Below are positions 34,752 to 41,615 of a DNA stretch of 64,000 nucleotides, in pieces. The translations under genes and the position numbers were made by a program. Numbering within the stretch: position 1 is the stretch's first letter; every line of letters begins with the position of its first letter. The notes under the pieces are model-generated. The model had not been told where the DNA came from. It searched no databases and was given only the letters and a program-made list of their open reading frames with translations. Origin of the DNA: Myxococcus guangdongensis (lineage in GTDB: Bacteria; Myxococcota; Myxococcia; Myxococcales; Myxococcaceae); assembly GCF_024198255.1 (NCBI RefSeq), contig NZ_JAJVKW010000003.1:62001-126000 (forward strand), read 5' to 3'.

Positions 34752-34904
34752 GAGGGTCCGCCCAAGCAGGGCTTATCGGCGGCGCGTGACGCCCGCAGCC
34801 ACGGTGTCTCGATGGTTGCCAGTGTGTGCGGGCGCGGGGCACAAGGCGCGTGGCGGCGCTCCTCGGGCGATGGCCGTCCGGATGCGCCGTTCGTCGGAGG
34901 GCAG

Positions 34905-36929
34905 ATGTCCCGCACGTGGTGGAGCATGGTGGCGGCCGTGGGTTTCATGGCCTGTGGCACGCAGGAGCCCGTCCCGGAGGCGCCGGAGCCGGTGTCCCGC
35001 GAGCAGGCGTGGGAGGGTGAGCTGGAGGTCCGGGTGGTGGACGCGCCTTCGCTCGAGCACGCGTATCAGGAGTACTTCCTGGTCGCCGGCCGCGAGCGTC
35101 GTCCGGTGGTGTTCGCGGACGCGGCGCCGAAGGGGCTGGTGAGCGGGCAGCGGGTGAAGCTGCGAGGGCGCGCCTCGGACGGTGCGCTCGTGGCGCACGC
35201 GGTGGAGGTGGACACGGAGCACCGCTCCGCGAGCGTCACCCCGGCCTGTGGTGTCACCGGCGTGCAGCGCAGCCTGGTCATCCTGGCGGAGTTCCCGGGC
35301 CAGCCCACGCCGTCGCTCCCGCTGTCCACCGTGGAGCAGGCGTTCTTCTCCACCACGCGCCGCTCGCTCGCGGGCTACTGGAGCGAGGTCTCCGAGGGGC
35401 GCACCACGACGACGGGCCATGTCGTGGGCTGGTACACGCTGGACCGCGCGTACTCGTGCTCGGAGACGAACGAGATGCGGGACGCGGCGATCGCGGCGGT
35501 GGGCGACGACGTGGACTTCACCGCGTATGACCGCATCTTCGTCATCCACCCGCGTCCGCTCTCGGGCTGTTTCTACGGAGGGCTCGCCACGCTGTCGTGC
35601 GGTCAGGTCTCGACGCCGTCGGGCACCGTGACGGCCTCCACCGCGTGGCTGGTCGCGGAGTCCATGGACACGTACGACCGCGCCGTGCACCTCATCACCC
35701 ACGAGGCAGGACACAACCTGTCACTCAACCACTCGCAGTCACGCGACTTCGGCGCGGAGCCGCTGGGATGGTTGAACACGCTGGGCACCCTGGACGAGTA
35801 CGGGGATTTGTTCTCGACGATGGGCCGCTGGAACCTGGGGCACTACGCGGCGCCGCACAAGGCGCGCATCGGCTGGCTGGACGCGTCCGCGGTGACGCAG
35901 GTGGACGGCGTGGGTGGCACCTTCACGCTCGCGCCGGTGCTGTCCTCCACCGGGGTGAAGGCGCTCAAGGTGCGTCGGGGCCAGGGCAGTGACGCGTGGC
36001 TGTGGCTGGAGTACCGCCAGCCGACGGGCGGCTACGAGCCGACGCTGCCCGCGCAGGTGTTCGGCGGCGCGCTCGTCCACTACCAGGATGGGGACACGCG
36101 GGATGGGACGCACCTGTTGGACTTCACGCCGGGGACGGCGTCCTGGAGCGACCCGGCGCTGCTGCCGGGCATCACCTGGGAGGACCCGTACAGCAACCTG
36201 TCGCTGCGCGTGGTGTCCGCGACGCCCGCCGGGCTCACCGTGCAGGTCCAGTACCGTCAGGCCCCCTGCATCCGCGCGGCGCCCGAGGTCGAGGTGACAC
36301 CGTTCGAGCCGACCGTCTACCCGGGCGCGCGTCCCGAGGTGGAGGTGTTCATCGTCAACCGGGACAGCCCGGCCTGCGGCCCCAGCACCTTCCAGCTCGC
36401 GTCCATCATCCCCACGGGTTGGGGCGCGGACCCGCTCTCCCCGCAGCGCTCCATCGCCGCGTCTGGCTCGGTGGCGCTGACGCTCCAGCTCTACACGCCG
36501 TATTCGATGACGCCGGGCACGTACACCACGGGCGTGGACGTGACCCGCTCCGGCCACACCGTGCGCGGCACCGCCACCATCGATGTCCTCGCGTCCTGTG
36601 TGACGGCCGCGCCCACGCTGACGCTCTCCCCGACGACGGTGACGGCGGCGCCCGGCTCGCTGGTGACGTGGACCGTGTCCGTGGCGAATCACGACTCCCC
36701 GTCGTGCAATTGGGTCTGGTACGACTTCTGGAACAACGACACCACGGGCTGGGACACCGAGTTCTCCGAGTGGGGCGTGAACCTCGCGCCGGGCGGTGAC
36801 TTCACCTTCACGATGACGAAGCGCATCCCGATGAGCGCCCGGGGCTCCCACACGGTGGGCCTGGAGCTCTTCCAGGACGAGGTGGGGACCGTGGGCACGG
36901 CGACCGCCACGGTGAACGTCGTCCCCTAG
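34905..36929 (+). CDS. Metzincin-type zinc metalloprotease lipoprotein (M11-like)
   Basis: 674 residues. I chose the ATG at 34905: GGAGG lies four bases upstream and it opens a lipoprotein signal ending in GFMAC (Cys17). After an N-terminal OB-like region (about 40-110) comes the protease, with the zinc motif HEAGHNLSLNH (His266, Glu267, His270, His276), as in gametolysin-type M11 metzincins, and preceding RSLAGYWSEVSEGR and YDRIFVIHPRP segments typical of them. Beyond about 470 are two NEW3/CARDB-like beta modules (TPFEPTVYPGARPEVEVFIV; TLTLSPTTVTAAPG) probably for surface binding. Likely an outer-membrane or secreted protease in predation or matrix turnover; this role is inferred. Confidence 0.88.
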   Translation: MSRTWWSMVAAVGFMACGTQEPVPEAPEPVSREQAWEGELEVRVVDAPSLEHAYQEYFLVAGRERRPVVFADAAPKGLVSGQRVKLRGRASDGALVAHAVEVDTEHRSASVTPACGVTGVQRSLVILAEFPGQPTPSLPLSTVEQAFFSTTRRSLAGYWSEVSEGRTTTTGHVVGWYTLDRAYSCSETNEMRDAAIAAVGDDVDFTAYDRIFVIHPRPLSGCFYGGLATLSCGQVSTPSGTVTASTAWLVAESMDTYDRAVHLITHEAGHNLSLNHSQSRDFGAEPLGWLNTLGTLDEYGDLFSTMGRWNLGHYAAPHKARIGWLDASAVTQVDGVGGTFTLAPVLSSTGVKALKVRRGQGSDAWLWLEYRQPTGGYEPTLPAQVFGGALVHYQDGDTRDGTHLLDFTPGTASWSDPALLPGITWEDPYSNLSLRVVSATPAGLTVQVQYRQAPCIRAAPEVEVTPFEPTVYPGARPEVEVFIVNRDSPACGPSTFQLASIIPTGWGADPLSPQRSIAASGSVALTLQLYTPYSMTPGTYTTGVDVTRSGHTVRGTATIDVLASCVTAAPTLTLSPTTVTAAPGSLVTWTVSVANHDSPSCNWVWYDFWNNDTTGWDTEFSEWGVNLAPGGDFTFTMTKRIPMSARGSHTVGLELFQDEVGTVGTATATVNVVP

Positions 36930-37086
36930 CGTGAAGCAGGGGAGGGGCGTCGTGGTCCGAGGCTCTCCTCCCTCGCGTGCGGACAGGCGACCCGTCGTCC
37001 GCGCGCAGGCCCCCGGGTCGCCGCACCGGGCCGCCCGCTTCGAGCCTGTGCAGCTTTCCCTCACACCCCACGGAAGGGAACCCGCC

Positions 37087-37590
37087 ATGTCCCAGAAGCT
37101 CCAGCGCATCACCCAGTGCCTCTGGTTCCAGAGCCACGAGCAGACGGAGGCCGCCGTCGCGCTCTACACGTCCGTCTTCCCCCACTCGCGTGTCATCACG
37201 CGGACGAAGTACACGGAGCAGAGCTCGGGGCCGAGCGGTCAACCGCCCGGCGCGGTGATGACCGTCCTCTTCGCGCTCGACGGCCAGGAACTGCTCGCGC
37301 TCAACGGCGGGCCGCACTTCAAGTTCAACGAGGCGATGTCGCTCATCGTCAACTGCGAGAGCCAGGCGGAGGTGGACCACTACTGGGCCCGGCTGTCCGA
37401 GGGCGGCGACGAGAAGGCCCAGCAGTGCGGCTGGCTGAAGGACCGCTTCGGCGTGTCGTGGCAGGTGGTGCCCACCGAGCTGACCCAGCTGCTGGCCAAC
37501 TCACCTCCCGAGAAGGGCGCCCGGGTGACGGCGGCCTTGTTCAAGATGAAGAAGCTGGACCTGGACGCCCTGCGTCGCGCCGCCGGCTGA
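37087..37590 (+). CDS. PhnB-like VOC-fold protein (glyoxalase superfamily)
   Basis: 167 residues from the ATG at 37087, which follows GGAAGGG; the frame is open upstream but without similarity. The protein opens with ITQCLWFQSHEQTEAAVALYTSVFP and has GGPHFKFNEAMSLIVNCESQAEVDHYW and GWLKDRFGVSWQVVPTEL, the hallmarks of the PhnB/3-demethylubiquinone methyltransferase-like VOC family. Despite that database name, these are not methyltransferases; most are small dimeric metal-binding or ligand-binding proteins of unknown substrate. It is a free-standing gene between the metzincin and a small lipoprotein. Confidence 0.9.
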   Translation: MSQKLQRITQCLWFQSHEQTEAAVALYTSVFPHSRVITRTKYTEQSSGPSGQPPGAVMTVLFALDGQELLALNGGPHFKFNEAMSLIVNCESQAEVDHYWARLSEGGDEKAQQCGWLKDRFGVSWQVVPTELTQLLANSPPEKGARVTAALFKMKKLDLDALRRAAG

Positions 37591-38511: not shown

Positions 38512-41490
38512 TCACGGCGCGCTCTTCGCTCCGCGCTTCGAGGCCTGGCGCTGCTGGATGCTCCGGCGCAGCTTGGCGATGAGCACCTCGGGGCTGGCGG
38601 AGCGCACGATGACGTCGTCGGCCCCGGCCTCCAGGCCCGCGGTGAAGACGACGGGGTCGTCCTTGTCGACGATGAGGAAGATGGGCAGGTCCTCGGTGGC
38701 GGGCGCCTTGCGCAGCGTCTGGAGCAACGCGTGGAGGTCTCCGTCCGGCAGCGGGTCCGCGAGCACCGCCGCGTGCGCTCCGGCGGCCAGCGCCTTCTCC
38801 ACCTCCGCCCGGGTCCGCGCGCGCACCGTGGCCATGCCCTCCGCCATCAGGCGAATCTGGAGCGTCAGCGCGTTGGTGCCGTCCGTCTCCGCCACCACGA
38901 CGCGGAACGCCGCCTTGTCCGTCTGCGCGTTCGACTCCAGCTCCGCGGTGAGCGCCTCCAGCGCGGGCGCGGGGAGCCGCGGGTCCTGACGCAGCGCCTG
39001 GAGCGCCTGGGCCGCGCGCGCCGGGGGCGCCTGGGGGTTCTGGACCTCCTGGATGAAGCGCGCCGCGCACAGCAGGGCCCCGGCGGTGCGGCTCGCGGGA
39101 GGCGTGCGGTCCTCGCCCTCCGGCAACACGGAGACGAGCAGCTCGTTCACCTCCGGCATCCCGCTGCCCACGAGCGCCAGCACCCGGGCGCGCGAGGGCA
39201 GCGCGAAGCGACGTGGCTCCTCCAGCCGCGCGGCCAGGGACAGGGCGCTGGCCGCCGTGGTGACCAGGACCTCCTCCACGCGCCCCGCGCCCATCCGCGC
39301 CGCCAGCCGCCGCGCCAGCTTCGTCAGGGCGGGCGCCAGCGTCGCGCTGCCGCCCAGCATCGACAGCACCCCGTCGAGCAGTCGCGCCTGGACCTCGCCC
39401 AGCTTCGCCAGCGGGCCGCCCTCGCCCGTCAGCGCCGCGCTGTATGAGGGCAACAGGCGCACCTCGACCTTGGGGTGCGCGGCGCGCAGCTTCTGCGCCA
39501 GCGCTCCCGGCTCCGCCACGGTGTCCTCGAGCACCAGCACCAGGTCATAGCCCCCGAGCGCCAGCGCGCGAGGCGCGTCCGCCGCGGGGCTGGTGGCCGC
39601 CGCGAGTCCCTGGGACAGGAGCAGCTTCACCGCGGCCTCGCGCGGCTCGGAGGGCTCGGCCACCACCAGCACCATGCGCGCGCGCACGTCGCTCTTCACG
39701 GGCGTGGCGCGGCTGACGGGCTCGGCGGGCGCGGGCGTGGGCACGGGGCCCTCCAGCGTCTGCCCGTCGAGCACGCGGCGTCCGGTGAACTGCTCCGCGA
39801 ACTGGAGCACCCGGGTGTCGCGCTCCTTCGCCTCGGCGGGCTCCTCCAGGGCGATGGGCGAGCGGTCCCGCACCTTGGGGACCTCGTTGTCATAGAAGCG
39901 GAGGATGGCCTTGCGGATGGCCTGCTCGGAGGCGAACAGCCCCTGCACGGCCACCACGCCCGCCTTGAACTTCAGGTTGTTGGTGACCTCCACGTCGCGC
40001 GGGTCCAGCACCGCGCAGGTGAGCTCGCGGCCCTTGAGTGAGACGGGCAGGGCGCACAGCCGGTCGCACAGCTCGCGCGGCACCAGGCGCAACAGCTCCT
40101 CCGGCACCGGCATCGTCATCAGCTGCTGCTCGGTGATGTGCGGCAGCCCGAACTGCTCGGACAGCGCGAGCACGAGGTTGTCGGGCTCCAGCCAGCGCTC
40201 GTGGAGGAGCACCTGGCCCAGCCTGCCGCCGCGCTTCTTCTGGATGGTGAGCGCCTCGTTCAGGATGTGCGGCGTCACCATGCCGCGCGTCAGCAGGATG
40301 GCGCCCAGCTGTTGCCGTGCCCGGACGACGCGGGTGCCGAGCATCGGGGGCGAGCCCATGCGCGTGGCCGGCTCGGCGCCCTGCGCGGGCTGGCGGACCA
40401 CGGACGTGGCCTGCGGGCCCGAGGGCGGCGGCGTCACCGGACGCAGCGTGGGCGGCGTGAGCGCGGCGGGCGCGGGACGGCGTGCCTCCCGGGGCGGAGG
40501 AGGCGGCGTCCTCACGCGGGCGAGGTCCTCGTCCACCAGGCGAATCTCCTCGCCCGGCGCGCCGGCCAGGTCCGCGAGCGGCGAGCGCCACTCCGGGAGC
40601 GCGCGGGCGAAGAGGCTGGCGATGTCGGCGGCGCCCACGCGCAGCCGATGGTCGAAGAGGAAGCTCTGGATGCCCTCGGAGAACTCGCGGGCGGCGGGGC
40701 AGCGCGCGTCCGGGTTGGCGGCCAGCGCGCGCAGGAGCAGGTCCCACAGCGGCGCGGGCACGCCCGGCAGCGGCTCCAGGGCGCGCTCGTCGAAGCTGCC
40801 CAGCGCGTGGATGATTTGCGGCGTGCTGCCCTCGAAGAGCCGCTTGCCCGCGAGCATCTCGTAGAGCATGAGCCCCAGCAGGAAGATGTCGCTGCGCTGG
40901 TTCACGGGGCGGCCGTGCACCTGCTCGGGGGAGAGGTAGTTGATCTTCCCCTTGAGGATGCCGGCCTGCGTCTCCTGGCGCTCCTCGTCGGCCACCTTGG
41001 CGATGCCGAAGTCGGCCAGCTTCACGCCGCCGTTGCTGGCCACCATGACGTTGGCGGGGTTGATGTCGCGGTGGATGATGTCGAGCGGAACGCCGGACGG
41101 GTCCGTGCGGCCATGGGCATACGCCAGGCCATCCGCCACCTGCTGGGCGATGAAGCATATCTCCCGCAGGCCCAGGGGCACCTGTCGCTTGCGCGCCGCC
41201 TTGAGCAGCGCGCTCAGGTTCTCCCCGTCCACGAACTCCATCACCATGTAGTACTGGCCCGCGCTCGTGCCCAGGTCCAGCACCTGCAAGACATTGCCGT
41301 GCTGCAGCGTGACGGAGAGCTTGGCCTCGCGCAGGAACAGCTCCACGAAGGAGGTGTCCTGCACGAACGAGGGCAGGATGCGCTTCACGGCGACAGGCTT
41401 CTCGAAGCCCTCCGCGCCCACCACCTTGCCGAGATAGACCTCGGCCATGCCTCCCGCGGCGAGCTTCTTGACGATCCGGTAGGTCCCCAC
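38512..41490 (-). CDS. Hanks-type Ser/Thr kinase fused to MshEN-like and two receiver-like domains
   Basis: 992 residues from a GTG at 41490, chosen because GGAG lies just upstream and the kinase fold starts at once; the frame is open upstream without similarity. Kinase domain (1-285): glycine loop AAGGMAEVYLG, Lys36 in VAVK, catalytic HRDINPANV (Asp142, Asn147) and DFG at 160-162. A proline-rich linker (325-385) is followed by a MshEN/GspE_N-like domain (about 391-500) made of two 24-residue motifs at 394-417 and 423-446 with a 5-residue spacer, the arrangement of MshE-type cyclic-di-GMP binders; the first has Gln for Arg and the second Arg for Gly. Two receiver-like domains end the protein (about 600-700 and 850-985). 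No membrane segment. Unusual architecture; inputs inferred. Confidence 0.9.
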   Translation of the reverse strand: MGTYRIVKKLAAGGMAEVYLGKVVGAEGFEKPVAVKRILPSFVQDTSFVELFLREAKLSVTLQHGNVLQVLDLGTSAGQYYMVMEFVDGENLSALLKAARKRQVPLGLREICFIAQQVADGLAYAHGRTDPSGVPLDIIHRDINPANVMVASNGGVKLADFGIAKVADEERQETQAGILKGKINYLSPEQVHGRPVNQRSDIFLLGLMLYEMLAGKRLFEGSTPQIIHALGSFDERALEPLPGVPAPLWDLLLRALAANPDARCPAAREFSEGIQSFLFDHRLRVGAADIASLFARALPEWRSPLADLAGAPGEEIRLVDEDLARVRTPPPPPREARRPAPAALTPPTLRPVTPPPSGPQATSVVRQPAQGAEPATRMGSPPMLGTRVVRARQQLGAILLTRGMVTPHILNEALTIQKKRGGRLGQVLLHERWLEPDNLVLALSEQFGLPHITEQQLMTMPVPEELLRLVPRELCDRLCALPVSLKGRELTCAVLDPRDVEVTNNLKFKAGVVAVQGLFASEQAIRKAILRFYDNEVPKVRDRSPIALEEPAEAKERDTRVLQFAEQFTGRRVLDGQTLEGPVPTPAPAEPVSRATPVKSDVRARMVLVVAEPSEPREAAVKLLLSQGLAAATSPAADAPRALALGGYDLVLVLEDTVAEPGALAQKLRAAHPKVEVRLLPSYSAALTGEGGPLAKLGEVQARLLDGVLSMLGGSATLAPALTKLARRLAARMGAGRVEEVLVTTAASALSLAARLEEPRRFALPSRARVLALVGSGMPEVNELLVSVLPEGEDRTPPASRTAGALLCAARFIQEVQNPQAPPARAAQALQALRQDPRLPAPALEALTAELESNAQTDKAAFRVVVAETDGTNALTLQIRLMAEGMATVRARTRAEVEKALAAGAHAAVLADPLPDGDLHALLQTLRKAPATEDLPIFLIVDKDDPVVFTAGLEAGADDVIVRSASPEVLIAKLRRSIQQRQASKRGAKSAP

Positions 41491-41615
41491 GCTGTCTCCG
41501 GAAGTTGCAATGGCAGTGCAAGTGTTCCGAAGAGAGGAAAGGCCATATTCCGGCAGGCGTATGGGGGCCCCCGCCGAAAAGCTGTCGGACTGTCCGCTGG
41601 TCGACCTTTGGGGGT

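What the first reader, a model, noticed from the sequence alone, without database searches (positions are those of the whole stretch)
38512..41490. Ser/Thr kinase fused to a MshEN-like cyclic-di-GMP domain and two receiver-like domains
The 24-5-24 residue layout of MshEN cyclic-di-GMP binders lies directly after the kinase linker. Two motif positions are changed (Gln394 for Arg; Gly replaced by Arg in the second motif). A soluble kinase that reads a second messenger and also carries receiver-like domains would merge three signalling types in one chain.
Basis: partly seen in the sequence, partly recalled or inferred. Interest (0 to 1): 0.65.

Follow-up and report, generated by a model that had tools for sequence, protein, structure and literature searches.

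The report
Myxobacterial kinase with second-messenger sensor domain
[quoted passage not shown] such kinase fusions were already reported in general terms, but this conserved family would let one test whether the messenger switches a Ser/Thr kinase directly.

Summary
Window 38512-41490 (minus strand, GTG start, 992 aa) encodes an intact-looking Ser/Thr kinase, a proline-rich linker, an MshEN domain and two receiver-like regions. The 24-5-24 motif scores 48.4 bits against a curated c-di-GMP-motif cut-off of 38. The eight positions lost in the non-binder XpsE stay consensus-like. Published work shows that MshEN binding can do without Arg at motif position 1, so binding is likely but unproven.

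Two corrections. First, the receivers look like pseudo-receivers: 0 of 18 orthologues have Asp in the acceptor column of either. Its predicted fold matches HD-GYP phosphodiesterases best (DvhD, Z 13.4), but it has no histidine; sequence tests do not support the link.

I found 18 full-length orthologues in 101 genomes, all in one family. Another family of the phylum has kinase-MshEN-receiver proteins, three of four with an intact receiver Asp.

Kinase-MshEN fusions were already listed in 2016 (PMC5013675). This is a new variant of a known kind: most likely a c-di-GMP-gated kinase with a pseudo-sensor tail.

The parts
38512..41490 (-). whole gene, 992 aa, GTG start, stop included
   Evidence: start codon at the aligned place in 18 of 18 orthologues
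41496..41499 (-). GGAG, possible ribosome-binding site
   Evidence: sequence read; a guess from sequence only
40696..41481 (-). Ser/Thr protein kinase domain (residues 4-265), RD type; Lys36, Glu55, His140-Arg141-Asp142, Asn147, Asp160-Phe-Gly all present
   Evidence: Pfam Pkinase 128.4 bits; residues kept in 18 of 18 full-length orthologues
40240..40311 (-). MshEN motif I (residues 394-417); position 1 is Gln instead of Arg
   Evidence: NF053729 48.4 bits over the 53 residues; residue table
40225..40239 (-). five-residue spacer KKRGG
40153..40224 (-). MshEN motif II (residues 423-446); turn Gly replaced by Arg432
   Evidence: R in 10, G in 7, K in 1 of 18 orthologues
39883..40152 (-). C-terminal half of the MshEN domain (residues 447-536)
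   Evidence: Pfam PF05157 59.3 bits, cut-off 23.1
39421..39681 (-). truncated pseudo-receiver 1 (residues 604-690), four beta-alpha units, Leu654 in the acceptor column
   Evidence: predicted secondary structure; alignment to three receivers of the same genome; column counts
38935..39399 (-). all-helical domain (residues 698-852), probably a degenerate HD-GYP fold, no histidine
   Evidence: model pLDDT 92.2; best PDB matches HD-GYP/HD domains; His count
38569..38901 (-). pseudo-receiver 2 (residues 864-974), full receiver fold, Ala911 in the acceptor column
   Evidence: Response_reg 20.4 bits, below cut-off; Z 20.7, rmsd 1.3 over 120 residues to 8fk2_A

Best explanation
A soluble RD-type Ser/Thr kinase whose activity is most likely set by c-di-GMP binding to its MshEN domain. 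c-di-GMP would sit between the two 24-residue motifs, reorient the MshEN halves and, through the linker and a dimer-forming pseudo-sensor tail (truncated receiver, pseudo-HD-GYP, pseudo-receiver), change how two kinase domains meet and phosphorylate each other and their targets. Shown here: the architecture, intact kinase residues, conserved MshEN motif, absence of Asp from the receiver acceptor columns and of histidines from the HD-GYP-like domain, and conservation across a bacterial family. Inferred: ligand binding, dimerisation, direction of regulation and targets.
For: Kinase residues intact in 18 of 18 orthologues. NF053729 over its cut-off, and matched at E up to 0.001 by 18 of 18 members of alignment A2. 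Both motif Gln, both third-position Gly and first-motif Gly403 invariant in 18 of 18; the motif leucine positions are Leu, Ile or Val. dN/dS of the 53-residue motif against six same-genus orthologues is 0.16-0.45 (five at or under 0.23), near the kinase (0.07-0.24); the linkers are at 0.32-1.15. MshEN binding without Arg at position 1 is published: PilF GSPII-B has Lys and Leu there and binds at 6 nM (PMC11731258, passages). The genome has 14 GGDEF matches over the cut-off. A catalytically dead HD-GYP that binds c-di-GMP, which makes the isolated domain dimerise, is published for DvhD (PMC13090378, section 10 read).
Against: Gln at motif I position 1 lies outside the published R/K/L set and outside the relaxed search pattern [RKPN]. 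MshE R9A lost 83% of binding and did not complement (PMC4624772, passages), although Wang et al. put the affinity change at no more than fivefold. Ser at position 1 of motif II abolished binding in an engineered PilF GSPII-A construct, and a perfect motif alone did not restore it (PMC12002112, passages). Arg432 replaces a Gly said to be required for the turn. For one same-genus orthologue (L049) the motif dN/dS is 0.45, near its first linker (0.47); against L010 of another genus it is 0.35, kinase 0.26. I saw no binding or kinase data for this family. The gene's neighbours were kept in only one of ten orthologous loci.
Confidence: 0.5

Rival explanations
1. The MshEN domain is a c-di-GMP-independent scaffold: the fold is kept for dimerisation or partner binding, and the ligand is no longer bound in this genus because of Q394 and R432.
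For: Both changes depart from the published consensus; R9A data; GSPII-A of PilF keeps the fold but does not bind. The neighbouring signalling domains have lost their active residues.
Against: Motif constraint close to that of the kinase in five of six same-genus comparisons; Gln417/446 and Gly396/425 are invariant in 18 of 18; orthologues of other genera have Arg (5 of 18) or Lys (6 of 18) at 394 and 7 of 18 have Gly at 432; the curated c-di-GMP model passes.
Confidence: 0.3
2. The kinase is regulated mainly by the C-terminal tail, for example by dimerisation through the pseudo-receivers or by protein partners, and MshEN only tunes or localises it, for instance through the type IV pilus machinery.
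For: REC1 and REC2 are strongly constrained against six same-genus orthologues (dN/dS 0-0.23 and 0.18-0.30) although apparently unable to accept phosphate.
Against: The MshEN motif is about equally constrained. The receivers are the parts missing from paralogues (both in L022-L024, REC1 in L025-L027), while MshEN is kept in all six.
Confidence: 0.15
3. A receiver still accepts phosphate on an Asp near the canonical place (Asp912 in REC2, one residue after the acceptor column; or Asp656 in REC1, two residues after it), so that the protein truly joins a two-component input.
For: Asp656 is kept in 17 of 18 orthologues and Asp912 in 7 of 18 (in the 12 rows and the loci the latter are the same-genus ones). 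Kinase-MshEN-receiver proteins of family f12 have an in-place Asp with Thr and Lys in 3 of the 4 confirmed by Pfam.
Against: The acceptor column holds Ala 13, Glu 4, Ser 1 in REC2 and Leu 11, Ala 6, Glu 1 in REC1 of 18, and in the model the third strand of each ends at that residue. In REC2 the Thr column is Thr in 1 of 18 and the Lys column is Arg 12 and Tyr 6.
Confidence: 0.05

Closest known systems
MshEN domain (PF05157; NCBIfam NF053729), as in V. cholerae MshE, T. thermophilus PilF GSPII-B and PilB
   Same: 53-residue 24-5-24 motif, both Gln, third-position Gly and hydrophobic positions, followed by the C-terminal half
   Different: fused behind a Ser/Thr kinase instead of before an ATPase; Gln at motif I position 1 and Arg at the motif II turn
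Ser/Thr kinase-MshEN fusions named in Wang et al. 2016 (PMC5013675, section 12 read)
   Same: same pairing of kinase and MshEN
   Different: the passages and sections I read name no such protein, and the supplement could not be read here, so I cannot say whether this family is in it
Kinase-MshEN-receiver-DUF4388 proteins of family f12 (L111, L118, L129, L136)
   Same: same order of kinase, MshEN and receiver; L118 is 31% identical over 562 residues and 35% over the receiver
   Different: receiver over the Pfam cut-off, Asp kept in 3 of 4; DUF4388. Kinase tree neither shows nor rejects one origin (p-AU 0.653)
M. xanthus Pkn1, Ser/Thr kinase with C-terminal PilZ (PMC8844925, passages)
   Same: Ser/Thr kinase joined to a c-di-GMP-type domain in a myxobacterium
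   Different: PilZ, not MshEN; that paper says its PilZ lacks the conserved binding motifs
DvhD HD-GYP receptor (PMC13090378, passages and section 10)
   Same: HD-GYP fold without the metal residues; best structural match of the helical domain (Z 13.4, 3.4 A, 152 residues)
   Different: linked to a periplasmic domain through membrane helices; sequence relation not significant; ligand residues not mapped here

Membership tests
Bacterial Ser/Thr (Hanks-type) protein kinase | kinase domain over the curated cut-off with Lys, HRD Asp and DFG Asp | tested here: met
   128.4 bits against 31.7; residues in 18 of 18 orthologues
Bacterial Ser/Thr (Hanks-type) protein kinase | measured kinase activity | not testable with these tools
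   needs protein
MshEN domain | PF05157 over cut-off | tested here: met
   59.3 bits against 23.1
MshEN domain | c-di-GMP motif model NF053729 over cut-off | tested here: met
   48.4 bits against 38
MshEN domain | strict 24-residue consensus in both motifs (R/K/L at position 1, Gly at position 10) | tested here: not met
   Q394 and R432; consensus from PMC5013675 and PMC11731258. This bears on ligand binding, not on the fold
MshEN domain | binding of c-di-GMP | not testable with these tools
   needs ITC or DRaCALA
Response regulator receiver (REC2) | receiver fold | tested here: met
   predicted model, Z 20.7, rmsd 1.3 over 120
Response regulator receiver (REC2) | phosphoacceptor Asp | tested here: not met
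   Ala here; Asp in 0 of 18
Response regulator receiver (REC2) | Pfam gathering score | tested here: not met
   20.4 against 30.2; of three orthologues scanned, L017 and L020 pass with 31.9 and 45.4, L010 does not with 20.6
Response regulator receiver (REC1) | complete fold and acceptor Asp | tested here: not met
   four strands only in the model; Asp in 0 of 18 in the acceptor column
HD-GYP domain (residues 698-852) | HD-GYP/HD fold | tested here: inconclusive
   top 12 VIA rows are HD or HD-GYP domains, best Z 13.4, but Foldseek best E is 9e-3 and helical folds can reach such Z by chance
HD-GYP domain (residues 698-852) | HD dyad and metal-binding histidines | tested here: not met
   no histidine here, 0-4 in 27 members
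HD-GYP domain (residues 698-852) | sequence similarity to HD-GYP | tested here: not met
   no HD family in the Pfam scan of 27 members; none in the PDB profile search; hhalign against one HD_5 protein 0.2% (a weak test)

The most novel reading that the evidence does not exclude
A Ser/Thr kinase gated by c-di-GMP at two sites: the MshEN pocket and a catalytically dead HD-GYP-fold domain kept as a second cyclic-dinucleotide sensor or ligand-driven dimeriser, as in DvhD, with the receivers reduced to dimer spacers. It would be a direct c-di-GMP-to-Ser/Thr-phosphorylation relay.
Probability: 0.12. Interest if true: 0.75.

Novelty: new variant of a known kind. Interest (0 to 1): 0.4.

Why it matters
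Genomes of this myxobacterial group carry about 100 Ser/Thr kinases each (PMC7694542, passages), and M. xanthus uses c-di-GMP in motility and development (PMC8316039 and PMC8844925, abstracts as listed). The listings of my searches of the held open library showed no Ser/Thr kinase proven to be switched by c-di-GMP. This family is a soluble candidate with natural orthologues that differ at the two disputed motif positions, so the question can be tested directly. It also shows receiver and HD-GYP-like modules kept under constraint after losing their active residues.

Tried and rejected
Sequence routes to the helical domain: no HD family in the Pfam scan of 27 members, no HD-GYP in the PDB profile search, hhalign against the genome's own MshEN-HD_5 protein at 0.2% (alignment against a single sequence). 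Only the structural comparison pointed to HD-GYP, so I mark that assignment inconclusive.

Genomic context: I tested eight neighbouring ORFs, none checked as genes and one (37083-37590) read out of frame by mistake. Six matched in G083; none matched in the other nine orthologous loci. Four same-genus loci share other neighbours among themselves. No partner gene emerged. No sigma-70-like promoter or terminator was found by consensus.

The search for related loci in genome contigs found no relative. The genome searches scored at most 26 or 16 candidates per genome, so absences there are soft.

One or two origins of the kinase-MshEN-receiver order: the quick kinase tree gives two clades in an unresolved set; holding them together is not rejected (p-AU 0.653). 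The background was 29 of the 93 other kinase matches of the window's own genome and none from other genomes, so this is weak.

Rejected: active HD-GYP phosphodiesterase (no histidine); receivers with a canonical acceptor; plain GspE_N without contacts.
Full report
Observation. The minus-strand ORF ends at 38512. The mechanical ORF start is ATG 41754, inside an upstream ORF that I read by eye as a methyltransferase, but the likely start is GTG 41490: a GGAG precedes it, and ATG or GTG stands at the aligned place in 18 of 18 orthologues. The protein has 992 residues. Pfam gives Pkinase 128.4 bits, MshEN 59.3 bits (cut-off 23.1) and a weak Response_reg of 20.4 bits (cut-off 30.2). NCBIfam's c-di-GMP motif model matches residues 394-446 end to end at 48.4 bits, cut-off 38. 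By sequence the nearest solved MshEN domains are PilF, PilB and MshE (5htl, E 2.6e-6).

Motif detail. Across 18 full-length orthologues, Gly396, Leu399, Gly403, Leu414, Gln417, Gly425, Leu428, Glu445 and Gln446 are invariant. Position 394 is Q in 7 (all same-genus), K in 6 and R in 5; position 432 is R in 10, G in 7 and K in 1. The XpsE positions that Wang et al. list as lost in a non-binder (G11, I19, L29, R38, G40, L54, L58, Q61) correspond here to G396, M404, L414, R423, G425, L439, L443 and Q446, all consensus-like (my mapping by motif position). By the same paper's relaxed pattern, motif I fails at position 1 and motif II at position 10, so a pattern search of that kind should miss this protein (my reading of the pattern, not run). 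PilF GSPII-B, with Lys and Leu at the two first positions, binds at 6 nM, and the authors extend the consensus to R/K/L (PMC11731258, passages). I saw no test of Gln. R9A in MshE is harmful (PMC4624772, passages), and Ser at the second motif's first position is not tolerated in an engineered PilF GSPII-A construct (PMC12002112, passages). Arg or Lys at the motif II turn also occurs in other MshEN proteins of this genome, for instance L061, L062 and L063.

Constraint. Nei-Gojobori dN/dS against six same-genus orthologues: kinase 0.07-0.24, 53-residue motif 0.16-0.45 (five of six at or under 0.23), MshEN C-terminal half 0.34-0.62, linkers 0.32-1.15, REC1 0-0.23, helical domain 0.25-0.44, REC2 0.18-0.30. 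Against L010 of another genus: kinase 0.26, motif 0.35, MshEN C-terminal half 0.55, REC1 0.47, REC2 0.50, helical domain 0.71, linkers 0.91-0.94. The motif has only 53 codons, so single values are noisy. The pattern says that the ligand half of MshEN and both pseudo-receivers are maintained, not decaying.

Receivers. In an alignment of 12 orthologues with three receivers of the same genome, the acceptor column of REC2 is Ala here. Over 18 orthologues it holds Ala 13, Glu 4, Ser 1, and in REC1 Leu 11, Ala 6, Glu 1; no Asp in either. Against a simple reading, an Asp lies one residue later in REC2 in 7 of 18 and two residues later in REC1 in 17 of 18; I think they are not acceptors, because the predicted third strand ends at the column I used. 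The AlphaFold model of residues 602-992 (12 sequences, mean pLDDT 78.7) gives REC2 a full receiver fold, Z 20.7 and rmsd 1.3 over 120 residues to 8fk2_A. REC1 has four beta-alpha units and then runs into a helix; among the 50 VIA rows it was covered only in those with the double-receiver protein PleD, at rmsd above 15, so its fold is less secure.

Helical domain. Residues 698-852, modelled alone with 27 sequences, reach pLDDT 92.2. The top 12 VIA rows are all HD or HD-GYP domains (for 5z7c that label is recalled), led by DvhD at Z 13.4, 3.4 A over 152 residues, 15% identity. Foldseek's best E-value is only 9e-3, and sequence tests found nothing. The domain has no histidine here and 0-4 in the 27 members; one Glu, at the place where a by-eye comparison puts the HD dyad, is invariant in 27 of 27. 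I read it as a degenerate HD-GYP fold that cannot be a metal-dependent phosphodiesterase. DvhD shows that such a domain can be a c-di-GMP receptor and dimeriser (PMC13090378, section 10). Whether this one binds anything is unknown.

Distribution. together examined 101 distinct genomes (49 and 77, overlapping). 18 hold the full-length protein (match spanning at least 595 of 615 query positions), all in family code f1: 7 of 20 in the window's genus, none in the 26 genomes outside f1. In the own genome there are 17 MshEN matches over the cut-off. Of the other 16, none has a kinase by Pfam (L051 was cut at its far end). The kinase query had 94 matches there, itself included.

Relatives. Shorter paralogues keep kinase, MshEN and helical domain but lack both receivers (L022-L024) or REC1 (L025-L027, whose 5' ends were cut). 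L030 has lost motif I and most of motif II. L028 and L029 are pseudokinases (HRG for HRD, DTG for DFG) with the helical domain and no MshEN (domain losses partly read by eye). Outside f1, after a phylum search in which 74 of 77 genomes had an MshEN match, I read 19 ORFs of my choice, mostly long ones, from 18 regions; 2 had kinase motifs. A second search with the L118 MshEN-receiver stretch hit 10 of 146 genomes at 13 places. Kinase motifs were visible in 5 of these 13; the other 8 ran off the 5' end of the stretch held. Four of the five are kinase-MshEN-receiver-DUF4388 by Pfam, with Asp in three and Glu in one; the fifth (L137) has no receiver match. G086 has the reverse order, MshEN before kinase (L050). 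The f1 kinases form one clade and the f12 kinases another; one common origin is neither shown nor rejected. A plausible history, which is inference, is an ancestral kinase-MshEN-receiver protein whose receiver decayed in f1.

Mechanism. The most likely mechanism is c-di-GMP binding to MshEN, altering the arrangement of a dimer held by the tail and so kinase autophosphorylation. Shown: parts and conservation. Inferred: everything dynamic. The genome can probably make the ligand: 14 GGDEF matches over the cut-off, activity not tested. I put binding at about 0.65 and regulation of the kinase by c-di-GMP at about 0.5.

Known or new. Wang et al. 2016 state that MshEN is found with REC, HD-GYP and Ser/Thr kinase domains, and count 22 MshEN-encoding genes in M. 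xanthus (section 12). A 2022 paper counts 17 MshEN proteins there (PMC8844925, passages). Pkn1, a kinase with a PilZ domain, is the nearest studied protein I met (same paper). The listings of my paper searches showed no experiment on a kinase-MshEN protein. The library is open-access only and supplements could not be read. Verdict: new variant of a known kind, moderate interest, directly testable.

Noticed in passing
L066:1180-2763 (own genome, C12:303179-304762): A 528-aa protein with four MshEN-like 24-residue stretches (three by pattern, one by eye; two pairs), a receiver (86.9 bits, Asp in place by eye) and an adenylate/guanylate cyclase domain (85.9 bits): another candidate that joins c-di-GMP, receiver and cyclase.
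   Followed up: partly
L028:538-2058 and L029:454-2031: Pseudokinases (catalytic Lys, HRD Asp and DFG Phe replaced) fused to the same helical HD-GYP-like domain, without MshEN or receivers.
   Followed up: partly
L030:457-1887: Paralogue in G014 with kinase and the second half of MshEN but without motif I and most of motif II, a natural loss of the ligand site.
   Followed up: no
L058:871-2823: Own-genome MshEN fused to an HD_5 (HD-GYP) domain, 88.3 bits, and DUF4388; keeps HD in YLHDLGK.
   Followed up: no
window 34812-36929: Plus-strand protein with HEAGHNLSLNH, by eye perhaps a secreted zinc metalloprotease; matched beside the kinase gene in G083 and not in nine other loci.
   Followed up: no
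L050:685-3066: In G086, MshEN lies before an intact-looking kinase, after a repeat-like N-terminus (by eye, no Pfam match): a different arrangement of kinase and MshEN.
   Followed up: partly
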